Shown here in pieces: positions 9,308-46,235 of a stretch of DNA of 64,000 nucleotides; within the stretch, counting starts at the first letter, position 1; each line of letters opens with the position of its first letter. Source of the DNA: Bacteroidaceae bacterium (GTDB taxonomy: Bacteria; Bacteroidota; Bacteroidia; Bacteroidales; Bacteroidaceae); NCBI GenBank assembly GCA_017524545.1, contig JAFXVN010000044.1, forward strand, positions 42,557 to 106,556, given 5' to 3'. The notes under the pieces are model-generated. The model was not told the origin of the DNA. It ran no database searches and saw nothing but the letters and a program-made list of their open reading frames with translations. The position numbers were made by a program, and so were the translations under genes.

Positions 9308-10318
9308 ATGGAGGCCGTCTTTTCTCCCCTCCCTTTGGGAGGGGTTGGGGGTAGGCTTCGAGTTGGAATACTCGGTGCTGCGGGTTACACAGGAGGTGAA
9401 CTTATTCGTGTGTTGCTTGGGCATCCTGAGGTGGAGATTGTTTTCGCAAATAGTGAATCGAATGCCGGCAATCCTGTCAGCGAAGTGCACGAAGGCCTTC
9501 TCGGCGACTGTGAGTTGAGGTTCACCCTCAACTCTCCCTTCGACAAGGTGGATGTGGTCTTTTTCTGCTTCGGCCACGGCAAGAGCGAGCAGTTCCTGAA
9601 GGAGCATGACATACCTGCAAATGTCAAGATAATCGACCTTGCTCAGGACTTTCGCATTGCAGGCGAACATGATTTCATCTATGGCCTTCCAGAGACGCAT
9701 CGCGAGCAAACGCGCACGGCTCAACACCTCGCCAATCCTGGCTGTTTTGCCACCTGCATACAGCTCGCTATGCTGCCCGCTTTGAAGGCTGGCATCATCA
9801 GCGGCGATATTCATGTGAATGGCATTACGGGCAGCACCGGGGCTGGTCAGAAGCCTGGTGCAACGACGCATTTCTCTTGGCGCAACGACAACATCTCCGT
9901 CTATAAGACTTTCACGCACCAGCATCTCTTGGAGATAAACCAGACGGTGCAGGAGCTTTGTCCTGGTTATGACGGCCGTGTGCTCTTCATCCCCCAGCGC
10001 GGCTGCTTCACGCGCGGCATCTTCGTGACGGCATACGCCAAATGCGACTTGCCGCTAGAAGAGGTACAGCGCATCTATGCCGATTATTACAAGGACGCTG
10101 CTTTCACGCACTTTGTTACCAAAAGCCCCGACATGAAGCAGGTGGTGAACACCAACAAGGCTCTCGTTTATGTGGAGAAATACGAGGACCAGCTTTTGAT
10201 GGTGAGCTGCATCGACAACCTGCTGAAGGGCGCCGTCGGGCAGGCAGTGCAGAACATGAACCTCATGTTCGGCCTCGATGAGACAGAAGGCCTGCGATTG
10301 AAAGCGTCAGCCTTCTGA
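9308..10318 (+). CDS. argC: N-acyl-gamma-glutamyl-phosphate reductase
   Basis: About 336 residues. It reduces N-acylglutamyl phosphate with NADPH. The Rossmann motif GILGAAGYTGGE and the active-site NPGCFATC (Cys154 when counted from 9284) are intact. The residues before LRVGILG (EAVFSPLPLGGVGGR) are translated from the right-hand palindromic element, so the natural start has been replaced by one upstream. ATGs at 9308 and 9284 are both possible; 9308 avoids most overlap with the DUF559 remnant. It lies between argG and argD. Confidence 0.92.
   Translation: MEAVFSPLPLGGVGGRLRVGILGAAGYTGGELIRVLLGHPEVEIVFANSESNAGNPVSEVHEGLLGDCELRFTLNSPFDKVDVVFFCFGHGKSEQFLKEHDIPANVKIIDLAQDFRIAGEHDFIYGLPETHREQTRTAQHLANPGCFATCIQLAMLPALKAGIISGDIHVNGITGSTGAGQKPGATTHFSWRNDNISVYKTFTHQHLLEINQTVQELCPGYDGRVLFIPQRGCFTRGIFVTAYAKCDLPLEEVQRIYADYYKDAAFTHFVTKSPDMKQVVNTNKALVYVEKYEDQLLMVSCIDNLLKGAVGQAVQNMNLMFGLDETEGLRLKASAF
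9322..9358. repeat. palindromic element forming the argC N-terminus
   Basis: Inverse copy of 9003-9039, read in frame as part of FSPLPLGGVGGRLR at the start of argC. Confidence 0.85.
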
Positions 10319-10371
10319 TTCGTCATAACGATATGACGTTATAACGCAATAACGAAAAGCAAAAAAGTGAA

Positions 10372-11499
10372 ATGGAACTATTTGATGTATATCCCCTGAT
10401 GGATGTGACTATTGCCCGTGGCAAAGGTTGCACCGTGTGGGACACGGAAGGTCAGGAGTACCTTGACCTCTACGGCGGTCATGCCGTCATTAGCGTGGGA
10501 CACTGCCATCCGCATTATGTGGAGGCAATAACGGGGCAGTTGCAAAAGCTGGGCTTCTACAGCAACTCCGTGCAGAACTCTTTGCAGAAGGAGCTTGCGC
10601 GACGCCTTGGCAAGGTCTGCGGCTACGATGACTACAGCCTCTTCCTCATCAACTCTGGTGCCGAAGCCAACGAGAATGCCTTGAAATTGGCATCTTTCTA
10701 TAATGGACGTACCCGTGTGCTTTCCTTGGAGAAGGCTTTTCATGGCAGAACTTCATTGGCTGTCGAGGCAACCAACAACCCCAAGATTATCGCTCCCATC
10801 AATGCGAACGGACACGTCACCTATCTGCCCCTCAACGACATTAGGGCATGGGAACAGGAGATAGAGAAGGGCGATGTGTGTGCTTGTATCTTGGAGTGCA
10901 TTCAGGGCGTGGGCGGCATCCGCATGGTCGAGGCTGGCTTCTTGCAGGCTCTTCGCAAGTTGTGCGATGAGCACAATACGGTGCTCATCTGCGACGAGAT
11001 ACAATGCGGCTACGGACGCAGCGGCAAGTTCTTCGCCCATCAGCACCTCGGCGTGAAGCCCGACATCATCACGGTGGCTAAGGGCATCTGCAACGGCTTC
11101 CCGATGGGCGCAGTGCTCATTTCCCCGAAGTTCACCCCCGTCTATGGTCAGCTTGGCACAACCTTCGGCGGCAACCATCTGGCTTGTGCTGGTGCCCTTG
11201 CCGTGCTCGACATCATCGAGAGCGAACGGCTCGTGGAGAATGCCGCAGAGGTGGGCGAGTACCTGATACAGACTATTCGCGACGCACAGCTGCCTCATGT
11301 AGTGGAGGTGCGTGGACGAGGCTTGATGATAGGCATAGAGCTTGACATCCCCTACAAGGAACCCCGCCAGCGCCTCGTCTGCGAACAGCATTGCTTCACT
11401 GGCTGCTCAGGCACAAACGTGCTCCGTCTGTTGCCGCCTCTCTGTTTGACAAAGGCCGAAGCAGACAGTTTCGTGGAAAGATTAAAAGCAGTATTATAA
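10372..11499 (+). CDS. argD: acetylornithine/succinylornithine aminotransferase
   Basis: 375 residues, class III PLP aminotransferase. NSGAEANENALKLA (94-107) binds the cofactor phosphate, DEI at 208-210 holds the ring-nitrogen Asp, and Lys237 in TVAKGICNG is the Schiff-base lysine. It converts N-acylglutamate semialdehyde to N-acylornithine. It follows argC by 53 bp, with a spacer of ATAACG units, and ends two bases before the proC start. Since the carbamoyltransferase here is the succinylornithine type, the substrate may be N-succinyl. Confidence 0.94.
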   Translation: MELFDVYPLMDVTIARGKGCTVWDTEGQEYLDLYGGHAVISVGHCHPHYVEAITGQLQKLGFYSNSVQNSLQKELARRLGKVCGYDDYSLFLINSGAEANENALKLASFYNGRTRVLSLEKAFHGRTSLAVEATNNPKIIAPINANGHVTYLPLNDIRAWEQEIEKGDVCACILECIQGVGGIRMVEAGFLQALRKLCDEHNTVLICDEIQCGYGRSGKFFAHQHLGVKPDIITVAKGICNGFPMGAVLISPKFTPVYGQLGTTFGGNHLACAGALAVLDIIESERLVENAAEVGEYLIQTIRDAQLPHVVEVRGRGLMIGIELDIPYKEPRQRLVCEQHCFTGCSGTNVLRLLPPLCLTKAEADSFVERLKAVL

Positions 11500-11501
11500 G
11501 A

Positions 11502-12233
11502 ATGAAGGTAACAGTTATTGGAGCAGGTAACATGGGCGGTGCCCTTGTGAAGGGCTGGGCAAAGGCTGGCATGGCGACGTGCCTCACTGTCACTGCCCGA
11601 ACGCAGCAGACACTCGACCGCCTCAAGGAAATCTGCCCTGGCATTACAGCCATGCTTGATAATAAAAAGGCTGTTCAGGGTGCAGATGTCGTGGTGCTTG
11701 CCGTCAAACCTTGGCTTGTGGAGCAAGTCATTGCGGAGATAACCCCTGAGTTGAGGGATAAACTGCTTATCTCCGTTGCAGCAGGTGTCCGCCATGAAAG
11801 AATTGATGTCTATGCCATGCCCAACATCGCTGCTGAGTTTGGCGAGAGTATGACCTTCGTCGAGGAGGCAGAGCAAGCAGAGACGGCAGCAGAACTTTTC
11901 GGCAGAGTGGGATTGTGCAAGGTCGTTCCCCAGCGACAGATGGCTGCCGGCATGATGATGGCAGGCTGCGGCATTGCCTACGTCGTGCGCTTCCTGCGTG
12001 CCATGATGGAAGGCGGCGTAGAAATGGGCTTCTATCCCGACGAAGCAAAGGAGATAGCCATGCAGACCATGCAGGGAGCCGTCACGATGCTTCGGGAAAC
12101 GGGACTTCACCCGGAGGCAGCTATCGACAAGGTGACAACTCCTGGCGGCATCACCATCAAAGGATTGAACGAACTGGATCATGCCGCTTTCAACTCGGCA
12201 GTAATACGCTGCCTTAAGGCAGGACTGAAGTGA
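11502..12233 (+). CDS. proC: pyrroline-5-carboxylate reductase
   Basis: 243 residues; the NAD(P)-binding GAGNMGGALVKGW is at 7-19, and the C-terminal dimer domain includes DKVTTPGGITIKGL. It reduces P5C to proline. The ATG at 11502 follows the argD stop by two bases; a longer frame from 11391 inside argD is not credible. It is the link between the arginine genes and the proBA genes that follow. The size is slightly shorter than the usual 260-270 residues but all motifs are present. Confidence 0.93.
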   Translation: MKVTVIGAGNMGGALVKGWAKAGMATCLTVTARTQQTLDRLKEICPGITAMLDNKKAVQGADVVVLAVKPWLVEQVIAEITPELRDKLLISVAAGVRHERIDVYAMPNIAAEFGESMTFVEEAEQAETAAELFGRVGLCKVVPQRQMAAGMMMAGCGIAYVVRFLRAMMEGGVEMGFYPDEAKEIAMQTMQGAVTMLRETGLHPEAAIDKVTTPGGITIKGLNELDHAAFNSAVIRCLKAGLK

Positions 12234-12302
12234 AAAGGTGAAAAGTTAAAAGGGTGAAAAGGTAAAAAAGAGAAAAGGTAAAAAGGTGAAAAAGTGAAAA
12301 GA
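12234..12302. repeat. GTGAAAAG-type linker repeat carrying the proB start
   Basis: About nine degenerate units of GTGAAAAG/GTAAAAAG fill the proC-proB spacer. The GTG start of proB at 12294 belongs to the last unit. Confidence 0.8.
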
Positions 12303-13067
12303 AGAATCGTTGTGAAGGTGGGCAGCAATGTGCTCACCACGGACAAAGGCAAGCTCGACATCACCCGCATGTCGTCGCTTGTTGACCAGATTGCCTGGCT
12401 GCGCTGGCACAACTATGACGTTGTGCTTGTCACAAGCGGTGCAGTGGCTTGCGGTCGCAATGAGTTGCAGGTTGACCATCTGCTGGATTCTGTCGAGCAG
12501 CGTCAGCTCTTTTCGGCAATGGGGCAGGTGAAACTCATCAACCTCTACTACGACCTCTTCCGCGAGTACAACATCCATATAGGGCAAGTCCTCACCACGA
12601 AGGAGAACTTTCAAAGCGAACGCTCCTATCAGAACCAAAGGGCTTGCATGGAGGTGATGCTGGAGAATGGCGTGCTGCCCATTGTCAATGAGAACGACAC
12701 GGTAAGCATCGAGGAACTGATGTTCACGGACAACGACGAGCTGTCCGGCCTGATTGCCAAGATGGTTGGGGCGCAGACGCTTGTGCTGCTCACAGGCGTT
12801 GATGGCCTCTACAACGGCAATCCCTCGGAACCTGGCAGCGAGGTCATCCGCACCATCAAGCCGGACGATGACTTGTCCCGCTACATTCAGTCGGAAAAGA
12901 GCACGGCCGGTCGTGGCGGAATGGCCTCCAAGTATAAGACAGCCTGCAGTGTGGCAGCCACAGGCATAAAGGTGATTGTTGCCAACGGAAACAGGAACAA
13001 CATATTGATAGATTTGGCAGAAAAGCCAGAGGAAACAATACATACGGAATGGACTTCGAACCGATAA
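12294..13067 (+). CDS. proB: glutamate 5-kinase
   Basis: 257 residues, the short form without a C-terminal PUA domain. KVGSNVLTTD (8-17), VTSGAVACGRNEL (about 45-57) and NENDTVS (about 133-139) mark the amino-acid kinase fold. It phosphorylates glutamate as the first step of proline synthesis. The start is GTG within a linker repeat (GTG AAA AGA AGA), so the repeat supplies the start codon. The 3' end overlaps proA by 19 bp, implying co-translation. Confidence 0.93.
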   Translation: MKRRIVVKVGSNVLTTDKGKLDITRMSSLVDQIAWLRWHNYDVVLVTSGAVACGRNELQVDHLLDSVEQRQLFSAMGQVKLINLYYDLFREYNIHIGQVLTTKENFQSERSYQNQRACMEVMLENGVLPIVNENDTVSIEELMFTDNDELSGLIAKMVGAQTLVLLTGVDGLYNGNPSEPGSEVIRTIKPDDDLSRYIQSEKSTAGRGGMASKYKTACSVAATGIKVIVANGNRNNILIDLAEKPEETIHTEWTSNR

Positions 13068-14221
13068 AACAGGCAAGCCGGGAGCTGATGCTCCTGACGG
13101 ACGAGCAGCGAAACGATGTGCTTCGGCGCATTGCCGACTGTGCCGAAGCAGCCACGGCACAGCTGCTTGCTGCCAATGCCATAGACTTGCAGAAGCTCGA
13201 ACCAAGCGACCCTCTCTACGACCGCTTGCTGCTTACGCCAGAACGTATCGCCGGAATTGCTGCAGACCTGTGCAACGTGGCCAGGCTGCCGTCGCCTCTT
13301 GGCATCGCCAGCAAGGAGCGGATTCTTGCCAATGGCCTTTATCTGCGGCGTATCAGTGTTCCTTTCGGTGTCATTGGCATTATCTTCGAGGCACGTCCCA
13401 ACGTCTGCTTCGATGTCTTTTCCCTTTGCTTCAAGAGCGGGAATGCCTGCATTCTGAAGGGAAGCCGCAGTGCAGAGGAAAGCAACCGTGCCATCGTGTC
13501 GCTCATCCACGATGTGCTTCGCGAGGCAGGCATTTGCCCTGATGTGGTGACGCTGATGCCGCCCACTCATGAGGCTACAGCGGAACTGCTTGGCGCTGTA
13601 GGCAGTGTTGACCTCGTCATCCCGCGAGGCGGCAGGAAGCTCATCGACTTTGTGCGCGACAATGCCCGTGTGCCGGTCATCGAGACAGGCGCAGGCGTGG
13701 TACATGCCTATTTCGACAAGGATGGCGACCTGGAGAAAGGGCGTCGCATCATCTGCAATGCCAAGATGCGGCGTGTGAGCGTCTGCAACGCGCTCGACTG
13801 TCTGCTGGTTCATCGCGACCGCGCGGCCGACATCCCCGCCTTGCTTGCCCCGATGGAGGGACGTGTGGAAATTGTTACGGACGAGGCGGCAATGGGTACG
13901 GAGTGGATGGACTACAAGCTGTCGCTCCGGGTGGTTGACAGCCTCGACGAAGCATTGGCACACATTGCCCGCTACGGCTCTGGGCATAGCGAATGCATCA
14001 TCACGGAGAACGGTCAGACGGCTTCCCGCTTCCAGCAGATGGTGGATGCCGCCTGCGTCTATGTCAATGCGCCCACCAGCTTCACCGACGGTGCACAGTT
14101 CGGCTTGGGTGCAGAGATTGGCATCTCGACACAGAAGCTCGGCCCTCGCGGTCCTATGGCGCTCGAAGAGATGACCACCTACAAGTGGCTCATCAATGGA
14201 AATGGACAGGTGAGAAGTTAG
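13049..14221 (+). CDS. proA: gamma-glutamyl phosphate reductase
   Basis: 390 residues of the aldehyde dehydrogenase superfamily. GVIGIIFEARPNV (about 108-120), KGSRSAEESN and the catalytic-cysteine region RRVSVCNALDCLL are visible. It reduces glutamyl phosphate to glutamate semialdehyde, which cyclises to P5C for proC. It overlaps proB by 19 bp. Directly after the stop codon comes a palindromic element. Confidence 0.94.
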   Translation: MDFEPIKQASRELMLLTDEQRNDVLRRIADCAEAATAQLLAANAIDLQKLEPSDPLYDRLLLTPERIAGIAADLCNVARLPSPLGIASKERILANGLYLRRISVPFGVIGIIFEARPNVCFDVFSLCFKSGNACILKGSRSAEESNRAIVSLIHDVLREAGICPDVVTLMPPTHEATAELLGAVGSVDLVIPRGGRKLIDFVRDNARVPVIETGAGVVHAYFDKDGDLEKGRRIICNAKMRRVSVCNALDCLLVHRDRAADIPALLAPMEGRVEIVTDEAAMGTEWMDYKLSLRVVDSLDEALAHIARYGSGHSECIITENGQTASRFQQMVDAACVYVNAPTSFTDGAQFGLGAEIGISTQKLGPRGPMALEEMTTYKWLINGNGQVRS

Positions 14222-14262
14222 CCCCTTCCCCAACCCTCCCCCGAGGAGGAGGGAGGATTTAG
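14222..14262. repeat. palindromic element, intergenic
   Basis: GCCCCTTCCCCAACCCTCCC then CCGAGGAGGAGGGAGGATTTA begins at the base after the proA stop. It is a diverged family member and is followed by GCTACC and by AAATGGTAAATGATT linker repeats. Confidence 0.65.
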
Positions 14263-16041: not shown

Positions 16042-17073
16042 GTGAAGAGTTTTCTTAATGTACAGGATTTGGGCGACTTGAAGCAAGCGCTTGCAGAAGC
16101 CCAAGAGATAAAGGCAGACCGCTACAAGTATGATACTTTGGGCAAGAACAAGACTCTGCTCATGGTGTTCTTCAACAACAGCTTGCGCACGCGCCTCAGC
16201 ACGCAGAAAGCAGCCATGAACCTCGGCATGAACGTCATTGTGCTTGATGTCAATGCGGGAGCTTGGAAGCTGGAGACGGAGCGCGGTGTCATCATGGATG
16301 GCGACAAGAGCGAGCATCTGCTGGAAGCCATCCCCGTTATGGGCAGCTACTGCGATGTCATCGGCATCCGTTCCTTCGCTGGCCTCACCGACCGTGACTA
16401 CGACTATGCCGAAACCGTTTACAACCAGTTCGTGCAGTACAGCGGCAAGCCCGTCTTCGCCATGGAGACCGCCACCGTGCACCCCCTGCAGGCCTTTGCC
16501 GACTTGATAACAATTGAGGAGAACAGCCCCCTCCCAACCTCCCCCAAGGGGGAGGGGACTCGACTGGGTACTCCCTCCCTGGGGGGAGATAGAGGGGGGC
16601 TTCCCAAGGTCGTCCTCACTTGGGCGCCGCATCCCAAGTCCCTGCCGCAGGCTGTTCCCAACAGCTTTGCCCAGTGGATGCTGGCTGCTGATGTCGATTT
16701 TGTCATCACCCACCCCGAAGGCTACGAGCTTGACCCACGCTTCGTGGCGGGCGCACATGTGGAATACGACCAGCGGAAAGCCTTCGAGGGCGCGGACTTC
16801 ATCTATGCCAAGAATTGGAGCTGCCCGGGCGTGACCCGTCCCGAAGACTACGGAAAGATACTGCACGACTACCATCAGATGATGCATTGGACGGTCGATG
16901 CCGAGCACATGAGCTGGACCAACAACGCCAAGTTCATGCACTGCCTGCCCGTGCGTCGCGGCATGATAGTCACTGACGATGTCATTGAGGCTCCCACCTC
17001 CCTCGTCATTCCCGAGGCCGCCAACCGCGAAATCTCCGCCACTGTCGTCCTCAAGAGAATCCTGCAAGGTTAA
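16042..17073 (+). CDS. argF': N-succinylornithine carbamoyltransferase
   Basis: 343 residues. Strong similarity to the Bacteroides enzyme: FFNNSLRTRLSTQ (43-55) binds carbamoyl phosphate, HPLQAFADL holds the catalytic region, and HCLPVRRGMIVTDDV lies near the C-terminus. It carbamoylates N-succinylornithine (or N-acetylornithine) in the acylated arginine pathway. Residue 90 is Ser (DGDKSEH), where from memory the B. fragilis enzyme has the specificity-determining Pro90. About 26 residues (NSPLPTSPKGEG...GDRGGL, near 162-188) are translated from a palindromic element pair and are absent from the Bacteroides protein I recall. The start is GTG within AAATAGTAAATTGTGAAG repeats. Confidence 0.92.
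   Translation: MKSFLNVQDLGDLKQALAEAQEIKADRYKYDTLGKNKTLLMVFFNNSLRTRLSTQKAAMNLGMNVIVLDVNAGAWKLETERGVIMDGDKSEHLLEAIPVMGSYCDVIGIRSFAGLTDRDYDYAETVYNQFVQYSGKPVFAMETATVHPLQAFADLITIEENSPLPTSPKGEGTRLGTPSLGGDRGGLPKVVLTWAPHPKSLPQAVPNSFAQWMLAADVDFVITHPEGYELDPRFVAGAHVEYDQRKAFEGADFIYAKNWSCPGVTRPEDYGKILHDYHQMMHWTVDAEHMSWTNNAKFMHCLPVRRGMIVTDDVIEAPTSLVIPEAANREISATVVLKRILQG
16525..16603. repeat. palindromic element pair inserted in frame in argF'
   Basis: AGCCCCCTCCCAACCTCCCC (left) and GGGGGGAGATAGAGGGGGGC (right) frame two cores, CCCCCAAGGGGG and CTCCCTCCCTGGGGGGAG. About 78 bases without a stop, read as NSPLPTSPKGEG...GDRGGLP. Confidence 0.85.
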
Positions 17074-17609: not shown

Positions 17610-17668
17610 TTTGTGTTGTTGACATATCCCGAATCCATAAGGGCACGTATCTGACCCTTTAGAACAAG

Positions 17669-17700
17669 AGAAAAGCATCCGCGTGGATGCTTTTTTTTTG
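17669..17700 (+). terminator. intrinsic terminator after the nitroreductase gene
   Basis: Stem AAAAGCATCC / GGATGCTTTT with loop GCGT, followed by a T run. Confidence 0.85.
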
Positions 17701-17726
17701 TTTCCAGCAAATTTCTTTTGTATTTC

Positions 17727-17757
17727 TTTGCTGTTTCCTTAATTATTCATACCTTTG
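17727..17757 (+). promoter_or_regulatory. promoter of the ADP-ribosyltransferase module
   Basis: TTTG (17727-17730), 19 bases, TACCTTTG (17750-17757): a textbook Bacteroidota promoter. The 5' leader that follows can pair ACCGC with GCGGT around 17763-17797. Confidence 0.8.
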
Positions 17758-17832
17758 CATCACCGCACTTAGCCCACAAGTGGGTGAGCGGGCGGTCTTA
17801 TATATAAGAAACAACAGGAAGGTGAGGTGAAT

Positions 17833-17976
17833 ATGCCAGAGTTTGAACATAACAGAGAAGAACGAATAGATGCAGTTATCAAGAGTATTCTGTCATCTAA
17901 GGAGAACGCTATCAAGTGGATGCATGAGGCGGGACTTGCCGATGCAAAAGGACGTCTTAATCCTATGTTTAGATGA
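17833..17976 (+). CDS. small protein upstream of the ADP-ribosyltransferase
   Basis: 47 residues (MPEFEHNREERIDAVIKSIL... ending GRLNPMFR), acidic N-terminus and a probable helix in the middle. It has its own promoter and overlaps the next gene by ATGA (17973-17976), so the two are co-translated. The order small gene then enzyme suits an antitoxin-toxin or accessory-effector pair. No family is recognised; function is inference from position. Confidence 0.65.
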   Translation: MPEFEHNREERIDAVIKSILSSKENAIKWMHEAGLADAKGRLNPMFR

Positions 17977-18593: not shown

Positions 18594-18623
18594 GGGCACG
18601 TATCTGGCCCTTTAGAACAAGAA

Positions 18624-24714: not shown

Positions 24715-25929
24715 TTAGTCCTCGCTGAGTTTGGCCAGGCCGCCTTCGGAGGTTTCCTTGTAGAGGGAGGGCAGGTCTTTGCCGGTCTGCTTCATGACGC
24801 GCACGACGCGGTCGAAGCTGACGCGGTGCTGGCCGTCGGACAGCGAGGCGTAGAAGTTGGCGTCGAGGGCGCGGGCGGCGGCGAAGGCGTTGCGCTCGAT
24901 GCAGGGAATCTGCACAAGACCGCAGACGGGGTCGCACGTCATGCCGAGGTGATGCTCCAAACCCATCTCCGCTGCATACTCAATCTGTGCCACACTGCCG
25001 CCGAAGAGCTGACAGGCGGCAGCCGATGCCATCGAGCTGGCTACGCCCACCTCTCCCTGGCAACCCACATCGGCACCCGAGATGCTGGCGTTCTCCTTGA
25101 CGAGATTGCCGATGAGTCCGGCGGTGGCAAGGGCGTGGAGAATGCGCTCCTCGGAGAAGGTGTGGTTGTGCCCCAGATGGTAGAGGACAGCGGGAAGGAC
25201 ACCGCACGAGCCGCAGGTGGGAGCCGTGACGATGAGTCCGCCGGAGGCATTCTCTTCGCTGACGGCAAGGGCGTAGGCATAGACAAGGCCGGAGCTTTGC
25301 AGGTTGGCCTTATAGCCTTTGGCTTTGGTGTAGTAGATGGGAGCCTTGCGCTGCAGACCGAGTGGGCCTGGGAGAACGCCTTCGTGGTCGATACCGCGCT
25401 CTACGGCTTCCTGCATGACGCGCCAAACCTCACGCAGATAGTCCCAGATTTCCGGCCCTTCGCACTGCTCCACATATTCCCAGAAAGCGTGTCCCGTCTC
25501 TTGGCACCACGCCATGATTGCCTTCATGGTAGTCAGCGGGTATTTCTCCCCTCCTTTTGGGAGGGATAGGGGGGAGGCTTCTTCCCCTTCCGAGAGTGCT
25601 CCGCCGCCGACGCTATATACTGTCCATTCGTCGAAGAGCGAGCCGTCCGGCTGACGCACGGCAAACTTCATCCCATTGGGATGGAAAGGCAGGAAGACGG
25701 TTGGCTCCCAGTGCAGGGTGACACTCCCCTTGGGTTCGAGGACACGGAGAATGGCGACATCGGTCATGTGGCCTTTGCCCGTGGCGGCGAGGGAACCGTA
25801 GAGCGTGACATCGAATGCTGTGGCCTCGGGATGACGCTCAAGGTACTGGATGGCTGCGGCTTGCGGCCCCATCGTGTGACTGCTCGACGGGCCGATGCCA
25901 ATGCGGTAAAGTTCTCTTAAGGAATGCAT
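24715..25929 (-). CDS. sdaA: L-serine ammonia-lyase (iron-sulfur, single chain)
   Basis: 404 residues combining the beta (about 1-140) and alpha (about 150-400) domains. Motifs: GIGPSSSHTMGP (12-23), VTAPTCGSCGVLPAVLYH with Fe-S cysteines, and CDPVCGLVQIPCIERNAF. It deaminates serine to pyruvate and ammonia. Residues SPLSLPKGGE (around 123-132, just before KYPLTTMKAIMAW) are translated from a palindromic element and sit in the linker after the first domain, where they may be tolerated. Confidence 0.93.
   Translation of the reverse strand: MHSLRELYRIGIGPSSSHTMGPQAAAIQYLERHPEATAFDVTLYGSLAATGKGHMTDVAILRVLEPKGSVTLHWEPTVFLPFHPNGMKFAVRQPDGSLFDEWTVYSVGGGALSEGEEASPLSLPKGGEKYPLTTMKAIMAWCQETGHAFWEYVEQCEGPEIWDYLREVWRVMQEAVERGIDHEGVLPGPLGLQRKAPIYYTKAKGYKANLQSSGLVYAYALAVSEENASGGLIVTAPTCGSCGVLPAVLYHLGHNHTFSEERILHALATAGLIGNLVKENASISGADVGCQGEVGVASSMASAAACQLFGGSVAQIEYAAEMGLEHHLGMTCDPVCGLVQIPCIERNAFAAARALDANFYASLSDGQHRVSFDRVVRVMKQTGKDLPSLYKETSEGGLAKLSED
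25541..25585. repeat. palindromic element in frame in sdaA
   Basis: TCTCCCCTCCTTTTGGGAGG then GATAGGGGGGAGGCTTC. Read on the minus strand as EASPLSLPKGGEKY. Confidence 0.85.
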
Positions 25930-26913: not shown

Positions 26914-27807
26914 TCAGCGTTCGCAAAGATGATATTGTACAATGCTTTCAATGGGGCGGCGCAGGATTCGGCCTATTTGCATGTCTTCTGCGGCGGCTGC
27001 CTCACGAATCTCTTCGGTGAACTGTTGCGCGATGCCTCCCACGCAGTTTACAGGCATTTCCCGGTGCTGATAAACGGTGATGTTACGCTCGAAGAACAGG
27101 CGAAAAGCACTGATCAGCATGTCATGGATGGCAGGATGTGCGCGATGCTCAACAATGAATGGCACAAGCGAAGCTAGGAACGTGTTGGCGGCAGGCTGGC
27201 GATAGACATGCTGGATGATGTCGGGCAGCGTCATGTCGTATTTGTCGCAGAACGCCTGTTTAAGCTCTTGGGGCAGCAATCCCTTGAAGAGTCCGTTCAG
27301 CAGTGTCTTGCCCAGCATGGAGCCGCTGCCTTCGTCGCCCAGAATGTAGCCTAATGGCGGCGTGTGCATCACGATGTCCTTGCCATCGTAGAGGCAGCTG
27401 TTGGAGCCTGTGCCAAGGATGCAGGCAATGCCGGGGTCATGTCCGCAAAGGGCGCGGGCTGCTCCCAGCAGGTCGCTCTCCACCTGGACCGAGCATCCTG
27501 GCAGCAGTTCACTGATGACGCTCTGCACCGTCTGGCTGAAGGGTGCGATGCATCCTGCACCGTAGAAGAAAATGGACCCACCCCAGCCCTCCCTTAAAGG
27601 GAGGGAGTCATTGTTCTCTCCCTTTAAGGGAGAGTTAGAGAGGGTCTCTGTCAGCAGTTGGCGGACTACATTATATATATATACGCGCGTGTCGCGCGCG
27701 GGATTGATGCCGTCGGTGTGCAGTTCGGTCTCTGTCCCGTCGGGGGCGACGTATATCCAGTCCGTCTTTGTCGAACCACTGTCAGCTATGAGAAGTGCGT
27801 TGTTCAT
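26914..27807 (-). CDS. BadF/BadG-type ATPase, probable N-acetylglucosamine kinase
   Basis: 297 residues from the ATG at 27807 (MNNALLIADSGSTKTDW). DSGSTKTDW is the phosphate-1 loop of the ASKHA fold, GTGSNSCLYDG and GDEGSGSMLG are further nucleotide and sugar motifs typical of the N-acetylglucosamine kinase-like branch. It probably phosphorylates an amino sugar; the substrate is inferred. Residues SNSPLKGENNDSLPLREGWG (about 50-69) come from a double palindromic element inserted in frame. The longer frame to 27927 includes the secG terminator and is rejected. Confidence 0.83.
   Translation of the reverse strand: MNNALLIADSGSTKTDWIYVAPDGTETELHTDGINPARDTRVYIYNVVRQLLTETLSNSPLKGENNDSLPLREGWGGSIFFYGAGCIAPFSQTVQSVISELLPGCSVQVESDLLGAARALCGHDPGIACILGTGSNSCLYDGKDIVMHTPPLGYILGDEGSGSMLGKTLLNGLFKGLLPQELKQAFCDKYDMTLPDIIQHVYRQPAANTFLASLVPFIVEHRAHPAIHDMLISAFRLFFERNITVYQHREMPVNCVGGIAQQFTEEIREAAAAEDMQIGRILRRPIESIVQYHLCER
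27570..27650. repeat. double palindromic element in frame in the BadF-type kinase gene
   Basis: Cores CCCTTAAAGGGAGGG (about 27591-27605) and CTCTCCCTTTAAGGGAGAG (27616-27634), with an outer GAGAGGGTCTC. TTTAAA-core subfamily, shared with mutY. Confidence 0.85.
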
Positions 27808-36406: not shown

Positions 36407-38890
36407 TTATCGCAGAATCTTCTTGCCGTTTAGGATGTAAATACCCCGAGGCAATTTACTATTTGACAATTTACTATTTACTATTTGGCCTGCGAGATTG
36501 TAGATTGCCCCTTCTTCTTTTGGGAGGGCAGGGGCGAGGCTGATGGATGCTGCCGTGTCGGGTCCCGCATATTGCCCGATGAAGAAGATGACGCCTGTAC
36601 TCTGCTCGCTGATGATGTAGAGGAACGGGCGGTCGGCATGGAAGGTGACATAGCGAGGCATACCGGTGCTTGTCGCTCCACCCACTGTGACGGCGGCAGC
36701 CTCCGTGCCTTCTTCGTCAAGGTCGATGGCGGCTTTCTGGAACATGTCGCTGATATACACGTTTTGATTGCAGAAGTATGGGAACTCGGCGCTTGTTTCA
36801 TCAAAGGCGGCAGGCATTCCCATTTCCTTCATTACCTCCACGAGCGGAAGATTCGTGCCTGTCTTGATGCGCGGCAGCTTCAAATCGACGTCGTAAGTCC
36901 GATACTGCTCGGATTTCCAGCTCGCGCCGTTAACCGTGGCAAGCACATCGTTGATGGTCTTGTCTTCGCGCGGTAGGAAGATGGTCATCTGGTATGCCTC
37001 ATTGCCGTAAGGCAGGCGAACCGTTTGGTAGAGGTTGTTTTCCGTGTATTGATAAGACTCCCATTGTTGCATCATAGGCACAGTTGCACCGCCATTGAAG
37101 GGTTCTTCGCGCGTGTATGTCGCGTCGAATTTGTTCGTCCATGCACCCTTGAAGTAGAGAGCGTTCAACAGGTAGCTGACGGCATATTCCCGGAAAGAAT
37201 TTTCGTCGAGTACTTCAGGAATCACTCCGTGCGTATGGTCGTTTGCCCACTGGTTGATGGTGTTCAGAGTCTGCTCCTTTTCGCGGAAGTTGAGTGCCTG
37301 CGGCTCGGCGTCGTAGAAGGCGTTGGCTTTGTCGATGAAGCCCTGTTGCAGTTCATAGCCGTCGCCGCTGTTCACAAAGATGGTGTTGGCAATCTCGGCA
37401 GCGGTCGTCTTGTCGAGCGTCGGTGCTTCTGTGAGCAGCTTCCGGCAGAACTGGTTGATGGCATCAGCTCCAGCATCGCCAAAGCCCAGCACCTCGTTGA
37501 TTTCCTGCTGCGTCTGCCCTGCGGCTCCGTTGTTTATCATGCCGAGGGCGAAGGTGATGCTCAGGGGCGAGACGATGAAAGACTCCTCCTTTGAGGCGTT
37601 GGAGATGGTCTGGAAAAGGTTGAAAGCGAAGTTGTTGTTGCTCTCCACGAGCTGCCTCTCCTCGCCAGAGAGTTCGATTTCCTTGCGCGGGTTTGCCGGC
37701 TCCTCGCCCATGTACTGCCCGATGAAGAAGATGGCACCTGTGCTCTGCTCGCTGATGATGTAGAGGAACGGACGGTCGGCAACGAACTCGGCATAGTCCG
37801 GGGCATCATACTTGCGGGTTTCGATGACCGTCACCGCAGATGCTTCTGTGCCTTCCTCGTCGAGCTTTATCCTGGCTGCCTGCTTCATCATGCCGATATA
37901 GGCATTCATGTTGCAGAACTGGTTGAAGCCGTAGCCGCCCCCGAAGGCGTTGGGCATACCCAGGGACTTCATGATGTCCTCGAGGCGTATGTCGGTCGCG
38001 GTCTCGAACTTGGGCATGTAGAGATCTACATGGCAAGCCCCATAGTCTTCTTTGCTCCATCCCTTGCTTTTCAGGTAGGCCAGCACATCACCGATGGTCT
38101 TGCCCCATCGGGGCAGGAAGACCGTCATCTGGTAAGCCTTGTTGCCGTAGGGCAGGATGACAGACTGATAGACGTTGTTCGCGGCATACGAGAAATCGCT
38201 GTGTTGGTACATTATCTGTGCCTCCTTGCGCCCTTCGTCGAACTGGCAGCGTTGTGTCTCCCCAGCATTGAACTTGTGCGTCCACTCGCCCTTGAAGTAG
38301 AGGGCATTCAGCAGGTAGCTCACGGCCTCGGGGTAGAACTCGTCCTCCCTGATGGCTTCCTCTATCATGCCTTCCGTGTGGTCGCTGCCCCACTGGTTCA
38401 TGACGTCGCGCGTCACGCCGTCGCCGAAGTCGCGGCTCTCGGGCGTGGCATCGTAATACTGCTGGGCCGTTTCCACGAAGGCGGGCAGCAGATAGCAGCC
38501 CGATGCGGAGTTGACGTAGATGTTGTTGGCGATGGCAATGCGCGTTGTCTCGTCGAGCGTGGCGCTTTCTGTAAGAAGTTTGCGGCAGAAGGCATTGATG
38601 GCATCTGCACCGCCCACGCCTTCGCTGCCCAGCACGGCATCAATCTCCTCGCGGGTGATGCCGTCGGCGCCATTGTTCAGCATTCCCAGGTCGAAGGTAA
38701 TGCCCAGAGGGGAGAGCAGCAGGCTCTCGTCGGCTCGCGCCTTTTGGAAGAGGTTCAGGGCAAACCGGTTGTTATTGTTCACAAACTGCCGCTCCTCGTC
38801 GGTCAACTGGATGCTCTTTGGCGTGACCTCGTCGGCAAAAACAGAGAGGGAAACTGCAAGTACAGTCAGAAGGAAGAATAATCGTTTCAT
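36407..38890 (-). CDS. secreted tandem serpin (two serpin domains in one chain)
   Basis: 827 residues: signal peptide (1-19), serpin domain 1 (about 25-395), serpin domain 2 (about 400-775), a short linker and a sorting-like tail with YNLAGQIVNSKLSNSK ending ILNGKKILR. Both domains keep the inhibitory hinge (DEEGTEASAVTV and DEEGTEAAAVTV) and the RPFLYIISEQSTG strand. By hinge counting, P1 would be near Tyr in domain 1 and Thr in domain 2; this is inference. Serpins trap serine or cysteine proteases irreversibly. The linker APALPKEEG appears to be translated from a palindromic element and NSKLSNSK from linker repeats. A single bacterial chain with two serpins is unusual. Confidence 0.9.
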   Translation of the reverse strand: MKRLFFLLTVLAVSLSVFADEVTPKSIQLTDEERQFVNNNNRFALNLFQKARADESLLLSPLGITFDLGMLNNGADGITREEIDAVLGSEGVGGADAINAFCRKLLTESATLDETTRIAIANNIYVNSASGCYLLPAFVETAQQYYDATPESRDFGDGVTRDVMNQWGSDHTEGMIEEAIREDEFYPEAVSYLLNALYFKGEWTHKFNAGETQRCQFDEGRKEAQIMYQHSDFSYAANNVYQSVILPYGNKAYQMTVFLPRWGKTIGDVLAYLKSKGWSKEDYGACHVDLYMPKFETATDIRLEDIMKSLGMPNAFGGGYGFNQFCNMNAYIGMMKQAARIKLDEEGTEASAVTVIETRKYDAPDYAEFVADRPFLYIISEQSTGAIFFIGQYMGEEPANPRKEIELSGEERQLVESNNNFAFNLFQTISNASKEESFIVSPLSITFALGMINNGAAGQTQQEINEVLGFGDAGADAINQFCRKLLTEAPTLDKTTAAEIANTIFVNSGDGYELQQGFIDKANAFYDAEPQALNFREKEQTLNTINQWANDHTHGVIPEVLDENSFREYAVSYLLNALYFKGAWTNKFDATYTREEPFNGGATVPMMQQWESYQYTENNLYQTVRLPYGNEAYQMTIFLPREDKTINDVLATVNGASWKSEQYRTYDVDLKLPRIKTGTNLPLVEVMKEMGMPAAFDETSAEFPYFCNQNVYISDMFQKAAIDLDEEGTEAAAVTVGGATSTGMPRYVTFHADRPFLYIISEQSTGVIFFIGQYAGPDTAASISLAPALPKEEGAIYNLAGQIVNSKLSNSKLPRGIYILNGKKILR
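36503..36545. repeat. palindromic element in frame in the serpin linker
   Basis: GCCCCTTCTTCTTTTGGGAG then GGCAGGGGCGAGGCT; read on the minus strand as SLAPALPKEEGAIY just before the C-terminal tail. Confidence 0.7.
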
Positions 38891-38962: not shown

Positions 38963-40090
38963 TTACAGCTTTTCCAACAGTTTCTCCAAAAGGCGGGGGA
39001 GTGCATAGCGGTCGAGGTCGGACTCTTTAATCCATTTACCATTTGACCATTTACCATTTACCATTTCATCATCGGCATGGGGAAGGGTGAGGCAGTAGAA
39101 GTCGGCATGGAGGCGTTGGTGGGTGAGCTGGTGGCGGACGTCGCGGGCGATGAGCGAAAGACCCTCTAAATCTCCCTTAAAGGGAGACTTTTTATTCTCC
39201 CCCTTTAAGGGCAATTGCCTGTTAGAAGCAGAGCAATTGGGGAGCGTAAGCGACGGAGGGCAAAAGTTAGAGAGGGTCTTCTCCACTTCCTCCATCGTCA
39301 ATGGTCTGTCCGACTCTATCAGCGGGAACTCGAAGAGGCCTTGCCAGATGTCGCCGCTGCCGCGACGGCGGAGGAGCGTCTGCCCGTCTTTCGTGCGCGT
39401 GTAAATATAGGTGAGGTAGCGGTCGCGGACGGCTGTGCGCTTCGACTTGATGGGCAGCTTATCGGTGAGATGCTCTTTCAATGCCTGGCAGGTGCCGGAG
39501 AGCGGACAGGTGTCGCAAAGCGGCGAAGTGGGTTTGCAGAGCAAGGCCCCAAAGTCCATGATGGCCTGGTTGTAGAGGGCAGGATGCTGGCGGTCGAGCA
39601 TTTCGTCGGCAAGGGCGCGGAGCAGCTTCTTGCCCTGCCCCGTATCGACGGGTTCGCAGATGCCGAAGTGACGGGCAAGGACGCGCTGCACATTGCCGTC
39701 GAGCACAGCGTACGGTTCGCCGAAGGCAAGGCTCATGATGGCTGCCGCCGTGTAGTCGCCCACACCTGGCAACGCCCTAACGAAGCTGTAATCCTTTGGA
39801 AAACAGCCAGCCGCCGCAATCTGCTTTGCCGCCGCATGGAGGTGACGCGCACGGCTGTAATACCCCAACCCCTGCCAGAGCCGCATCACTTCCTCCTCGC
39901 TTGCCTCTGCCAGACTCTCAGCCGTGGGGAAGCGTTCGGCAAAGCGGAGGTAGTAGTCCGTGCCTTGAGAGATTTGTGTCTGTTGGAGGATAAACTCCGA
40001 GAGCATGATGAGGTAGGGGTCGCCTGTCCTGCGCCAAGGCAAGTCGCGGCCGTGCAACTCGTACCACTGCTCTAAATGAGTGCTGAACAT
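38963..40090 (-). CDS. mutY: A/G-specific adenine glycosylase
   Basis: About 375 residues from ATG 40090 (MFSTHLEQWYELHGRDLPWR). HhH-GPD domain with SEFILQQTQ and LPGVGDYTAAAI, catalytic Asp region YAVLDGNVQRV, and Fe-S cluster C-x6-C-x2-C-x5-C (CKPTSPLCDTCPLSGTC). It removes A mispaired with 8-oxoG. The C-terminal NUDIX-like domain is interrupted by about 35 residues (NFCPPSLTL...SPFKGDLEG) from a palindromic composite, and by VNGKWSNGKW from ACCATTT linker repeats near the end. Catalytic parts are intact. Confidence 0.92.
   Translation of the reverse strand: MFSTHLEQWYELHGRDLPWRRTGDPYLIMLSEFILQQTQISQGTDYYLRFAERFPTAESLAEASEEEVMRLWQGLGYYSRARHLHAAAKQIAAAGCFPKDYSFVRALPGVGDYTAAAIMSLAFGEPYAVLDGNVQRVLARHFGICEPVDTGQGKKLLRALADEMLDRQHPALYNQAIMDFGALLCKPTSPLCDTCPLSGTCQALKEHLTDKLPIKSKRTAVRDRYLTYIYTRTKDGQTLLRRRGSGDIWQGLFEFPLIESDRPLTMEEVEKTLSNFCPPSLTLPNCSASNRQLPLKGENKKSPFKGDLEGLSLIARDVRHQLTHQRLHADFYCLTLPHADDEMVNGKWSNGKWIKESDLDRYALPRLLEKLLEKL
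39158..39283. repeat. composite palindromic element in frame in mutY
   Basis: Outer arms AAGACCCTCTAA-type (39158-39170) and TTAGAGAGGGTCTT (39268-39281) are inverted. Inside are TCTCCCTTAAAGGGAGA and CCCCCTTTAAGGGC palindromes. About 110 bases, no stop codon in the mutY frame. Confidence 0.85.
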
Positions 40091-40277: not shown

Positions 40278-40367
40278 ATGCCAAACGGAAAGAAACATAA
40301 GAGACACAAGATGTCAACGCACAAGCGTAAGAAGAGACTGAGAAAGAATAGACATAAGAGCAAGTAA
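40278..40367 (+). CDS. AURKAIP1/COX24-domain small ribosomal protein
   Basis: 29 residues, extremely basic: MPNGKKHKRHKMSTHKRKKR then LRKNRHKSK. The HKM-THKRKKRLRKNRHK pattern is the AURKAIP1/COX24 (mS38-like) domain that Bacteroidota carry as a tiny ribosome-associated protein. Own promoter. It lies just before rng. Too short for ordinary gene finders, but the match and promoter are convincing. Confidence 0.85.
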   Translation: MPNGKKHKRHKMSTHKRKKRLRKNRHKSK

Positions 40368-40375
40368 GGTACTTC

Positions 40376-40495
40376 TCAGAGGAAAAGTTAAGAGGTGAAA
40401 AGGTAAAAAGGTGAAGAAGTGAAAGGGGCAGACCTTTTCCACTTGGCTTTTTTACCTTTTCACCTTTTCAATTTCTCACCTTTTCGAAGAAGGAA
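40376..40495. repeat. inverted linker repeats before rng
   Basis: GTGAAAAGGTAAAAAGGTGA units (about 40395-40425) face TTTTTACCTTTTCACCTTTT (40450-40470); together a long imperfect hairpin. Confidence 0.7.
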
Positions 40496-44666: not shown

Positions 44667-44685
44667 TTCGCTATACATTATTATA

Positions 44686-45063
44686 TTATCTGTAGAACTT
44701 GGGGAGAATACGGAATGCATCTTCTATATGCTCGATTCTGCTTGCTTCGTCATTATAAATGATGCAAACGACATCGAAGCGGCAATGGAAGTCTATGCGA
44801 TGGGTCTTCAAATAGGAATCCGCAGCGAGAATGATGCGGCGTTGCTTCCTCGCATCCACAGCAGAGACCGGCGTTGTTGCAGAACCAACCTTGCGCGTCT
44901 TGACCTCCACAAAGACAACGACATCATCCTTCGTGGCAATGATGTCAATCTCCTTGCGACCTTTGTTGGTCCAGTTGCGCTCAAGGACACAATAGCCCTG
45001 TTGCTGCAGATACTCCGCCGCCATGTCCTCGCCCTTGTGTCCTATGTAGTTGTGTGCCGCCAT
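44686..45063 (-). CDS. YraN/UPF0102 family protein
   Basis: 125 residues. GHKGEDMAAEYLQQQGYCVL and KEIDIIATKDDVVVFVEVKTR show the nuclease-like (PD-(D/E)XK) UPF0102 fold. The biological role is unclear. It begins five bases downstream of the mnmA stop on the minus strand, likely one operon. Confidence 0.88.
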   Translation of the reverse strand: MAAHNYIGHKGEDMAAEYLQQQGYCVLERNWTNKGRKEIDIIATKDDVVVFVEVKTRKVGSATTPVSAVDARKQRRIILAADSYLKTHRIDFHCRFDVVCIIYNDEASRIEHIEDAFRILPKFYR

Positions 45064-45068
45064 ATTGC

Positions 45069-46235
45069 TTATCTTTCCTTATAGATGCTTATCTCCCCGC
45101 TGCCATAGCAGACCGTCGCGTCGGCATCGTAGATGCAGCCGAACTGACCGGGGGCGATGCCTTGGATGGGAGCATCGGAATGGACGTGATAGCCTTCGTC
45201 GTCGAGGGTGATTGTGCCAGGCATGAAGTGGTCAACGTGGCGGACTTTGAACATGATAGGAAAGCCTCCTCCCCGCTCCCCCTTTGGGGGAGTGCTTTGG
45301 AGCGGCGAGTCTGCGGGAATGTGGCACTCCCCCAAAGGGGGAGCGGGGAGGGGGCTGATTGGCTCCGTAATATAGTGGAAGTCCGCCAGCCGGAAGTCGT
45401 GTCCGTACTGCAACTGCGTGTCCCAGCCATGCGCTACGAAGATGATGTTCTTCTTCGCGTTCTTCTTTACGACGAACCACGGGCCGCCGCTCAAACCGAG
45501 GCCTTTCCTCTGTCCGATGGTGTGGAACCAGAAGCCTTTGTGCTTGCCGACGACCTTGCCCGTCTCGATGTCGATAATCTTTCCCTCCTGTTCGCCCATG
45601 AAGCGACGGATGAAGTCGTTGTAGTTTATCTTGCCGAGAAAGCAGATGCCCTGACTGTCCTTGCGTTTGGCACTCGGAAGCTTTGCATCGAGCGCAATCT
45701 GTCGTACTTCCTCTTTCATTAGATGACCGATGGGGAAGAGCGTATGACTGAGTTGTTCGTAGCTGAGCTGTGCGAGGAAGTCCGTTTGGTCCTTGACGGG
45801 ATCCTTTGCTGTGCCGAGCCACATTTTGCCGTCTCGCACGACATTCGTGGCATAGTGCCCTGTGGCGATGTAGTCATAATGGCAGCCCACCTTCTGCTCG
45901 AAAGCGCCGAACTTAATGAGACGGTTGCACATCACATCGGGATTGGGTGTCAAACCTTTCTTCACGCGCTCGATGGTATAGCCCACGACTTGCTCCCAGT
46001 ACTCCTTCTGAAGGTCTGTCACCTCCAGTTTCAATCCGTATTTCCGAGCCGTTGCCTGTGAAAGCTCGATGTCCTCCTCTGCCGTACACGACGAGTCTTC
46101 CCCGTCCATACCTATTTTAATATAGTGCAGGTCAGGCTTCAACCCCGCCTCGCAAAGCAGATGCACAACAACTGCGCTATCCACCCCGCCAGAAATGAGC
46201 ACGGCAACGGAGCCCTTTATTAGTTCATAGTTCAT
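45069..46235 (-). CDS. mnmA: tRNA-specific 2-thiouridylase
   Basis: 388 residues. P-loop SGGVDSAVV (15-23), catalytic cysteine in [12 protein letters not shown] (about 98-109) and second cysteine in GICFLGKI. It thiolates U34 of Lys, Glu and Gln tRNAs. Residues [10 protein letters not shown]...[11 protein letters not shown] (about 294-326) derive from two inverted palindromic elements in the C-terminal beta domain. The start codon lies in ATGAACT linker repeats. Confidence 0.93.
45261..45357. repeat. two inverted palindromic elements in frame in mnmA
   Basis: Left: AAAGCCTCCTCCCCGCTCCC with core CCCTTTGGGGGAGTGC. Right: GCACTCCCCCAAAGGGGGAG then CGGGGAGGGGGCT. They are inverse copies 24 bases apart. 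Read without a stop on the minus strand. Confidence 0.88.

What the first reader, a model, noticed from the sequence alone, without database searches (positions are those of the whole stretch)
9322..45357. Family of GC-rich palindromic elements inserted in frame into housekeeping genes
Seen directly: palindromic elements with cores such as CTCCCAAAGGGAG or CCCTTTAAAGGG occur between genes (7651, 9003, 14222, 53648, 55405, 58505) and inside the open frames of argC (9322), argF' (16525), sdaA (25541), the BadF-type kinase (27570), the serpin (36503), mutY (39158) and mnmA (45261). All reading frames stay open, giving PLPxGG/SPxKGE-type peptides. Known parallel: Rickettsia palindromic elements also sit in frame in genes. 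Inference: this is an active or recently active family tolerated in protein loops.
Basis: partly seen in the sequence, partly recalled or inferred. Interest (0 to 1): 0.85.

Follow-up and report, generated by a model that had tools for sequence, protein, structure and literature searches.

The report
Endonuclease-borne palindromes inserted inside genes
The GC-rich palindromes scattered through this bacterium are most likely the ends and shrunken remnants of a small selfish DNA element that carries a DNA-cutting enzyme gene (DUF559) and can sit in frame inside working genes, even essential ones, without stopping their translation.

Summary
The palindromes are real: 12 arms in the window against 1 in 20 shuffles. 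In-gene copies in mnmA, argF', the kinase and mutY are in-frame insertions that genus orthologues mostly lack.

New: the palindromes come as inverted pairs, and the full form of the pair encloses a DUF559 (PF04480) endonuclease gene. All three DUF559 matches of this genome are so flanked, including a remnant at 9003-9358. Of 80 Bacteroidota loci 44 have strong flanking inverted repeats (20 of 22 free-standing), against 2 of 240 random spots in the same loci. Two of eight loci fetched from other phyla (Pseudanabaena, Deinococcus) show it clearly.

In 58 of 80 loci DUF559 lies in a longer open frame, with host genes such as LeuRS and RecG; no splicing domain was listed in 25 scanned, and the nuclease motif is kept in 99 of 99 domains. 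A 96-nt mini-element occurs at 20 places, 19 inside long ORFs.

DUF559 resembles the homing endonuclease I-Bth0305I. That DUF559 moves the element is inferred.

The parts
7652..7684 (+). single arm (AGCCCCCTCCCCGCTCCCCCTTTGGGGGAGTGC) just after the stop of ORF 7029-7649; exact reverse complement of 45324-45356
   Evidence: (I13)
9003..9039 (+). left inverted repeat of a DUF559 element, beginning at the stop of ORF 7802-9004
   Evidence: (I7, 100% complementary to 9322-9358)
9043..9300 (+). truncated DUF559 ORF (85 aa; PF04480 match 9112-9240, E 3.7e-6)
9322..9358 (-). right inverted repeat of the same element; read in frame as the N-terminal part of argC (MDQNSNNTMEAVFSPLPLGGVGGRLRVGILGA)
14220..14256 (+). 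degenerate arm overlapping the stop codon of ORF 13049-14221
   Evidence: printed sequence; not found by the scanner
16525..16602 (+). paired-arm mini-element, 78 nt, in frame in argF'; net +21 residues against solved 1js1
25541..25579 (-). single arm in frame in sdaA; net insertion not shown
27575..27646 (-). paired-arm mini-element, 72 nt, in frame in the BadF-type kinase; by eye one arm is like those of L005 and the other like those of L006, both of this genome
39157..39280 (-). degenerate paired-arm element in frame in mutY (outer ends AAAGACCCTCT / AGAGGGTCTT)
   Evidence: (alignment to solved MutY ends at residue 289)
45262..45357 (-). 96-nt paired-arm mini-element in frame in mnmA; found at 20 distinct places among the loci kept
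53648..53678 (+). single arm just after a stop codon, upstream of a separate hairpin
55410..55440 (-). single arm, intergenic
58521..58557 (-). single mnmA-type arm at the 3' end of the large ORF 58553-62932
   Evidence: (I15)

Best explanation
The palindromes are the ends, single arms and internally deleted (mini) forms of a compact mobile element. The full form (about 0.4-0.7 kb) is one small ORF for a DUF559 endonuclease (Vsr/EDxHD type) between two inverted repeats, each carrying its own hairpin. Mini forms keep two hairpin arms around a short variable middle. SHOWN: this architecture; its statistical association with DUF559; sites without the insert in sister species; multi-copy mini-elements; in-frame presence of mini and full forms in many unrelated genes; conservation of the nuclease motif in copies fused into host proteins. 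INFERRED: the nuclease cuts DNA (perhaps the junction formed when both arms extrude) and break repair or copying spreads the element, so it behaves like a homing endonuclease gene with hairpin ends and not like a classical transposase. Insertion is tolerated because the arms (C/T-rich, then G/A-rich) rarely contain stop codons and the whole ORF can be read through, so in genes mainly in-frame, loop-located copies survive. Some hosts may come to depend on the element: in this genome argC and the DUF58 gene appear to take their start codon from it.
For: Three of 3 DUF559 matches of this genome are flanked by inverted hairpin arms. Genus/order set: 21 of 31 loci have a flanking-repeat score >=14, against 13 of 124 with swapped flanks. 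Named Bacteroidota: 44 of 80, against 13 of 160 swapped and 2 of 240 random spots in the same loci; free-standing 20 of 22. Phylum-even sample: 11 of 23 uncut loci, against 6 of 138 swapped. Other phyla: Pseudanabaena 59 and Deinococcus 47, above every one of 56 swapped scores (maximum 22). Open frames >=280 aa: 58 of 80 loci; 19 of 20 representatives have a host family in Pfam. In L064 140 residues sit where solved LeuRS 1h3n has 3. Site without the insert for a full element: distance from moxR end to a DUF58 anchor 38-185 nt in 21 of 21 other species, 503 and 502 nt in the two carriers. Mini-element: 20 places, 19 inside ORFs >=290 aa; 13 of 18 scanned beyond mnmA have a Pfam host. Motif in 99 of 99 domains, 63 of them in genes. 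Fold: I-Bth0305I 3r3p, Foldseek E 3.1e-5, profile E 5.1e-8.
Against: No movement was observed. 36 of 80 Bacteroidota loci, 12 of 23 phylum-sample loci and 34 of 58 in-gene copies lack a strong flanking pair (decay is assumed, not shown). In the 8 loci of other phyla, Sphingomonas (21) and Picosynechococcus PCC 7003 (16) lie within the swapped range (7 of 56 controls >=14, maximum 22) and four score 9-13. 11 of 24 genus relatives have no DUF559 match; one of them, G018 (80% complete), has a fine paired-arm element in argF' (L236). No target-site duplication or target motif was found. Association does not say whether DUF559 moves the arms or settled between them. On the DUF559 tree copies cluster by host gene (28 label changes, 60.7 when shuffled), and no repeated arrival is forced by well-supported branches, so much of the host spectrum may be inheritance. 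The 80-locus set is the best of a similarity scan; in the phylum sample 19 of 105 matches have an open frame >=350 aa.
Confidence: 0.63

Rival explanations
1. The paired palindromes are an older REPIN/MITE-like family moved by another enzyme (a RAYT-type Y1 transposase or an IS transposase), and DUF559 is a homing endonuclease gene that invades the stretch between the two arms.
For: A mini-element occurs in a relative without a detected DUF559 (G018). The genome has 4 Y1_Tnp matches, best E 4.7e-6. REPs and RAYTs show this logic in other bacteria (PMC3733652, passages seen). One of three window arms checked has CTAC, that is GTAG on the other strand.
Against: None of the 3 Y1 loci that could be tested is flanked by these arms (L420 has a short left flank, and the fourth, L422, was read at the wrong place, so it was not tested). 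DUF559 with paired arms recurs widely in Bacteroidota and in two loci of other phyla with different arm sequences. IS transposases were not searched for.
Confidence: 0.24
2. Static regulatory hairpins (terminators, mRNA-stability elements) that multiplied by chance, recombination or slippage, with no dedicated mobility.
For: Several arms lie at or just after stop codons (7652, 9003, 14220, 53648).
Against: 20 places with copies 78-96% identical to the mnmA element, 19 of them inside long ORFs; species without the insert; no Rfam family at gathering score in the window; a transcription terminator would be out of place inside mnmA, uvrA or a DEAD-helicase gene.
Confidence: 0.06
3. The in-gene segments are ancestral protein parts, not insertions.
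For: sdaA: the solved enzyme 4rqo aligns through the segment without a gap.
Against: Absent from genus orthologues of mnmA (13 of 13 anchored), argF' (18 of 23 empty), the kinase and mutY; the same DNA is read in different frames in different hosts.
Confidence: 0.02
4. The elements are members of the Rickettsia palindromic element (RPE) families.
For: Same behaviour: short palindromic repeats in frame in genes (PMC10969869, passages seen).
Against: Another phylum and several arm types of their own. No sequence comparison with RPEs was made. In the passages seen no enzyme is named for RPEs.
Confidence: 0.03

Closest known systems
Rickettsia palindromic elements (RPE)
   Same: Short palindromic repeats in frame in unrelated genes as well as between genes (PMC10969869, passages seen)
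   Different: Here the repeats come as inverted arm pairs, and a full form with an endonuclease ORF exists that can itself sit in frame in genes
REP/REPIN sequences and RAYT transposases (REPtrons)
   Same: Inverted pairs of hairpins as dispersed repeats; an enzyme gene flanked by such hairpins (PMC3733652, passages seen)
   Different: The enzyme is a DUF559 (Vsr/EDxHD-fold) nuclease, not a Y1 HuH transposase; mini-element copies are mostly inside ORFs and in frame
EDxHD homing endonucleases (I-Bth0305I)
   Same: Homologous nuclease core by fold and profile; a selfish nuclease family (PMC3943268, passages seen)
   Different: Here the gene is flanked by hairpin repeats and has mini forms; no intein domain was listed; introns were not tested in the fusion loci
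Inteins with homing endonuclease domains
   Same: Nuclease in frame inside conserved enzymes, at recurrent sites
   Different: No splicing domain listed in the 25 fusion ORFs scanned with Pfam, so the insert probably stays in the protein
DUF559 / VsrA of Caulobacter
   Same: Same domain family; VsrA causes DNA-damage signalling in cells lacking a methyltransferase (PMC12907096, passages seen)
   Different: Described there as a putative mismatch-repair nuclease; the passages seen mention no mobile element
MITEs of insertion sequences
   Same: Non-autonomous, inverted-repeat, multi-copy derivatives of a coding element
   Different: No target-site duplication found; each arm is itself a hairpin; the coding form carries a DUF559 nuclease

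Membership tests
REP/RAYT | Y1 (HuH) transposase gene flanked by the repeats | tested here: not met
   0 of 3 testable Y1_Tnp loci of this genome flanked by these arms; the fourth match was misplaced in the script and not tested
REP/RAYT | GTAG (or CGTC) tag at one end of the repeat | tested here: inconclusive
   Three window arms checked: two without, one with CTAC (GTAG on the other strand) in its outer block
REPIN | two hairpins in inverted orientation around a short variable middle | tested here: met
   13 clean two-ended mini-elements of 84-107 nt among 20 places
Rickettsia palindromic elements | palindrome translated in frame within host genes | tested here: met
Rickettsia palindromic elements | sequence similarity to RPE families | not tested
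   no RPE sequence was fetched
EDxHD/Vsr-type endonuclease | fold and conserved core | tested here: met
   AF2 model mean pLDDT 85.5; 3hrl E 3.8e-7, 3r3p E 3.1e-5, Vsr 1vsr only 0.096; profile to 3r3p E 5.1e-8; D[FL]..E[VILM]DG..H in 99 of 99 domains
EDxHD/Vsr-type endonuclease | DNA cleavage by these proteins | not testable with these tools
   no experiment
Homing endonuclease element | insertion at the endonuclease's own recognition site in alleles without it | tested here: inconclusive
   recurrent sites in LeuRS, IleRS and RecG, but inheritance was not separated from homing
Intein | Hint protein-splicing domain | tested here: not met
   no Hint-type family listed in 25 DUF559 fusion ORFs; the E-value limits were 1e-3, 1e-5 and 1e-8, so a weak match could be missed
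MITE of a DDE insertion sequence | target-site duplication | tested here: inconclusive
   none seen by eye at the ends listed; a 0-2 bp duplication cannot be excluded

The most novel reading that the evidence does not exclude
DUF559 elements are an undescribed class of bacterial mobile DNA: a lone Vsr/EDxHD nuclease with hairpin inverted repeats that spreads without transposase, intron or intein and survives by being translated as a non-spliced domain inside essential enzymes, and that generates much of the GC-rich palindromic repeat load of many Bacteroidota (and perhaps cyanobacterial and Deinococcus) genomes. A second class of the same design exists in which the four-helix-bundle protein PF05635, known from 23S rRNA intervening sequences, lies between inverted arrays of AT-rich 7-8-mers.
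Probability: 0.48. Interest if true: 0.95.

Novelty: categorically new. Interest (0 to 1): 0.9.

Why it matters
It proposes an enzyme for in-frame palindromic repeats of the Rickettsia type, gives a domain of unknown function a biological setting, and shows whole nuclease domains carried, apparently unspliced, inside aminoacyl-tRNA synthetases and DNA-repair enzymes. It would explain odd 'DUF559' fusions and PLPxGG/SPxKGE peptides in annotations, and offers a compact system in which gene insertion, loop evolution and host dependence (element-supplied start codons) can be tested directly.

Tried and rejected
Ancestral protein segments: rejected for mnmA, argF', kinase and mutY. Known RNA families: none at gathering score in the window. 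RAYT/Y1 mobiliser: 0 of 3 testable loci flanked. Viral DUF559 relatives as carriers: 2 of 40 have flanking repeats >=14 (40 of the 80 viral loci were given to that test). A MAFFT alignment of 25 arms (A2) was too poor for a covariance model, so none was built. Target-site duplication: none found by eye. Counting elements across whole genomes was not done. Six-frame openness of mini-elements is largely compositional: 55 of 78 frames open, 47.0 expected from shuffles; window 96-mers average 2.6 of 6. The single-strand fold of the argF' element is no better than shuffles (z -0.37); the mnmA and kinase stretches fold well (z -9.97 and -4.61).

Literature: nine searches listed no paper that by title or abstract links DUF559 with palindromic or inverted repeats. 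14 papers in the held library contain 'DUF559'; two of these also hold 'palindromic' and were seen only in the listing, on other subjects by title. I saw passages of three of the 14 (PMC12907096, PMC9403480, PMC9845703) and passages of PMC10969869, PMC9769881, PMC3943268 and PMC3733652; no paper was read whole. PMC9403480 places a Thermosynechococcus DUF559 gene in the EDxHD homing family, in a section on inteins. Subscription papers and preprints are not covered. Organisms of PDB entries other than 3hrl and the names IleRS and ValRS are recalled or read from motifs, not given by a call.

Full report
1. Check of the observation. A scanner for the arm design (pyrimidine-rich outer block, short spacer, C/T stem, short loop) gives 12 arms in the 64-kb window and 1 in 20 dinucleotide shuffles. 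Two further reader sites are degenerate copies missed by the scanner (14222, and mutY at 39157-39280). The serpin site at 36503 is not supported. The elements in argF', the kinase, mutY and mnmA are pairs of arms in inverted orientation; 9003-9039 and 9322-9358 are exact inverted copies 282 nt apart.

2. Insertion, not ancestry. Between fixed anchors in mnmA the window has 108 nt and 13 of 13 anchored genus orthologues have 33-54 nt; 10 more loci could not be anchored. Orthologues up to 95% identical in the aligned part lack the insert. In argF' the window has 92 nt; 18 of 23 genus loci have 26-44 nt and five have 65-155 nt. Of those five, L236 (G018) carries a paired-arm element of the present kind, L227 (G020) such an arm together with other repeats, and L228 (G013) and L230 (G014) inverted repeats of other kinds. 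Against solved 1js1, argF' has a net +21 residues at the element. None of 22 kinase and 18 mutY orthologues shows the window's insert; kinase L345 and L352 have palindrome-like peptides and L363 a tandem repeat in the same loop. For sdaA a net insertion is not shown.

3. The full element. The DNA between 9003-9039 and 9322-9358 encodes a truncated DUF559 protein (PF04480, E 3.7e-6). The genome's two other DUF559 genes are intact (132 and 133 aa) and also lie between inverted arms: L005 with AGACCCACCCC..CCCTCCCTTAAAGGGAGGG and L006 with AGGACCCTCTCT..CTCCCCCTTAAAGGGGGAG. By eye, the kinase element combines an arm of each type. A local-alignment score between the upstream flank and the reverse complement of the downstream flank reaches 14 in 21 of 31 genus/order loci (swapped flanks 13 of 124), in 44 of 80 named Bacteroidota loci (swapped 13 of 160, viral DUF559 relatives 2 of 40; random spots in the same loci 2 of 240) and in 11 of 23 uncut loci of a phylum-even sample (swapped 6 of 138). 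Free-standing DUF559 genes reach it in 20 of 22 cases, in-gene ones in 24 of 58. Of 8 plasmid loci fetched from other phyla (37 records matched), Pseudanabaena (59) and Deinococcus (47) stand above every swapped control (maximum 22 of 56, 7 of them >=14). Sphingomonas (21, between transhydrogenase subunit genes) and Picosynechococcus PCC 7003 (16) do not, and the other four score 9-13.

4. In-frame fusions. 58 of 80 loci have the DUF559 domain in an open frame of at least 280 aa; by a length criterion 47 have further frame on both sides, 10 only after it and 1 only before it. Sequence clusters, with Pfam on 20 representatives of which 19 show a host family, give LeuRS (11, two sites), IleRS (10, two sites), RecG (8), RNase H-like (6), MetRS (4), Gmk (3), CinA, GH31, UvrD (2 each) and one each of ValRS, Ham1, aldehyde dehydrogenase/MaoC, MeaB/mutase, adenine deaminase, MazG, UDP-GlcNAc epimerase, ABC-F and amino-acid kinase. 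Pfam says only class I tRNA synthetase for the IleRS and ValRS groups; those two names are my reading. L094 has no named host and L063 only clustering support. In L064, residues 293-432 stand where solved LeuRS 1h3n has 3 residues. No splicing domain is listed in the 25 fusion ORFs scanned. The nuclease motif is intact in 63 of 63 in-gene and 36 of 36 free domains; 3 of the 99 have an internal stop. On the DUF559 tree host labels need 28 changes against 60.7 when shuffled; RecG copies form one clade, while one LeuRS site needs 4 changes and one IleRS site 5, though well-supported branches force only one origin for each. The 80 loci are the best matches of a similarity scan; in the phylum sample 49 of 118 genomes have DUF559 (E <= 1e-12) and 19 of 105 matches lie in frames of at least 350 aa.

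5. Site without the insert for a full element. From the end of moxR to an anchor in the DUF58 gene, 21 of 21 other genus loci have 38-185 nt; the window's genome has 503 and G020 has 502, there with a broken DUF559 (stops). In G000 the DUF58 frame lacks the start seen in relatives and reads from an ATG overlapping the DUF559 stop through the right arm (MNDAQRDSSLPLREGRGGSVDILKK); in G020 an ATG is kept right after the arm. argC in the window likewise starts within the element (argC orthologues not compared). No target-site duplication was evident.

6. Mini-elements. The 96-nt mnmA element gives 92 BLAST matches in its genome (40 of 65 candidate stretches scored), both strands of one symmetrical copy often counting twice. 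The 30 loci kept hold 20 distinct places, 19 of them spanned by ORFs of at least 290 aa. Of the 18 scanned beyond mnmA, 13 have a Pfam host: UvrA, radical-SAM, DEAD helicase, MutS-type, UvrD-type, M16, subtilase, CCA-type nucleotidyltransferase, lipoyl ligase, flippase, SNF2, GH43, TsaD; 5 have none at E <= 1e-10. Several reading frames are used. 13 places have two clean ends, 84-107 nt long, eight of them 96; 7 do not. Among DUF559 elements selected for arm score >=18, the two nucleotides just outside the stem differ between the arms in 22 and 25 of 45 comparisons, other positions in 0-33%: they would be unpaired at the junction that both arms could form. The general agreement of the two arms in that set is partly due to the selection.

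7. The enzyme. An AlphaFold2 model of the L060 DUF559 (mean pLDDT 85.5) matches 3hrl (a solved relative) and the homing endonuclease I-Bth0305I (3r3p), then with weaker scores AbaSI and Vsr; the profile search agrees on 3hrl and 3r3p. VsrA of Caulobacter, a DUF559 protein, is reported to cause DNA-damage signalling when a methyltransferase is missing (PMC12907096, passages).

8. Mechanism. Shown: architecture, association, insertions, fusions, conservation. Inferred: DUF559 cuts DNA at or near arms or targets and the element spreads by repair; internal deletion gives mini-elements, decay gives single arms; selection keeps in-frame loop insertions. The main rival is that DUF559 invaded an older palindrome family moved by another enzyme; the Y1 test against it is small (0 of 3 loci flanked).

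9. Novelty. It works like REP/RAYT systems (hairpin arms, coding and non-coding forms), like RPEs (in-frame palindromes) and like homing endonuclease genes (nuclease in conserved genes), but its enzyme is of another kind than the Y1 transposases and no intein splicing domain was found. The searches of the held library list no description of the combination; other literature was not searchable. If DUF559 proves a passenger, the rating falls to a new variant of a known kind.

Noticed in passing
L286-L312 (PF05635 loci, genus and order): Four-helix-bundle genes (PF05635, the 23S rRNA intervening-sequence protein family; 12 matches in this genome) lie between inverted arrays of AT-rich 7-8-mer repeats: 16 of 23 loci tested score >=14, against 4 of 92 with swapped flanks. 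Looks like a second, parallel element class.
   Followed up: partly
window 12218-12323, 40367-40485, 48219-48364, 26664-26730, 46216-46254: AT-rich 7-8-mer tandem arrays, some in inverted pairs; similar repeats occur in frame in argF' of L230 and in mutY of L325 and L326.
   Followed up: partly
window 36447-36486: AT-rich repeat read in frame in the serpin C-terminal segment; the related segment at 53744-53823 is aligned without gaps, so it may be a replacement and not an insertion.
   Followed up: no
window 17628-17759 and 18581-18712: 132-nt direct repeat, 89% identical, flanking a 206-aa ORF (17973-18593) with no Pfam match.
   Followed up: no
window 55302-55363, 56420-56481, 57060-57121: 62-nt repeat, two copies 94% identical and one 69%, in an AT-richer region.
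   Followed up: no
L064 ORF residues 146-204: A second extra segment in the same LeuRS: 59 residues where solved 1h3n has 2.
   Followed up: no
argF' loop, L227, L228, L230, L236: Different repeat families lie at the same protein loop in different species of one genus.
   Followed up: partly
L281, TsaD gene of G000: A mini-element end supplies the N-terminal peptide of TsaD (...[26 protein letters not shown]).
   Followed up: no
L363, kinase orthologue of G010: A long SSSSLSGEDEV-type tandem repeat sits at the site of the window's kinase element.
   Followed up: no
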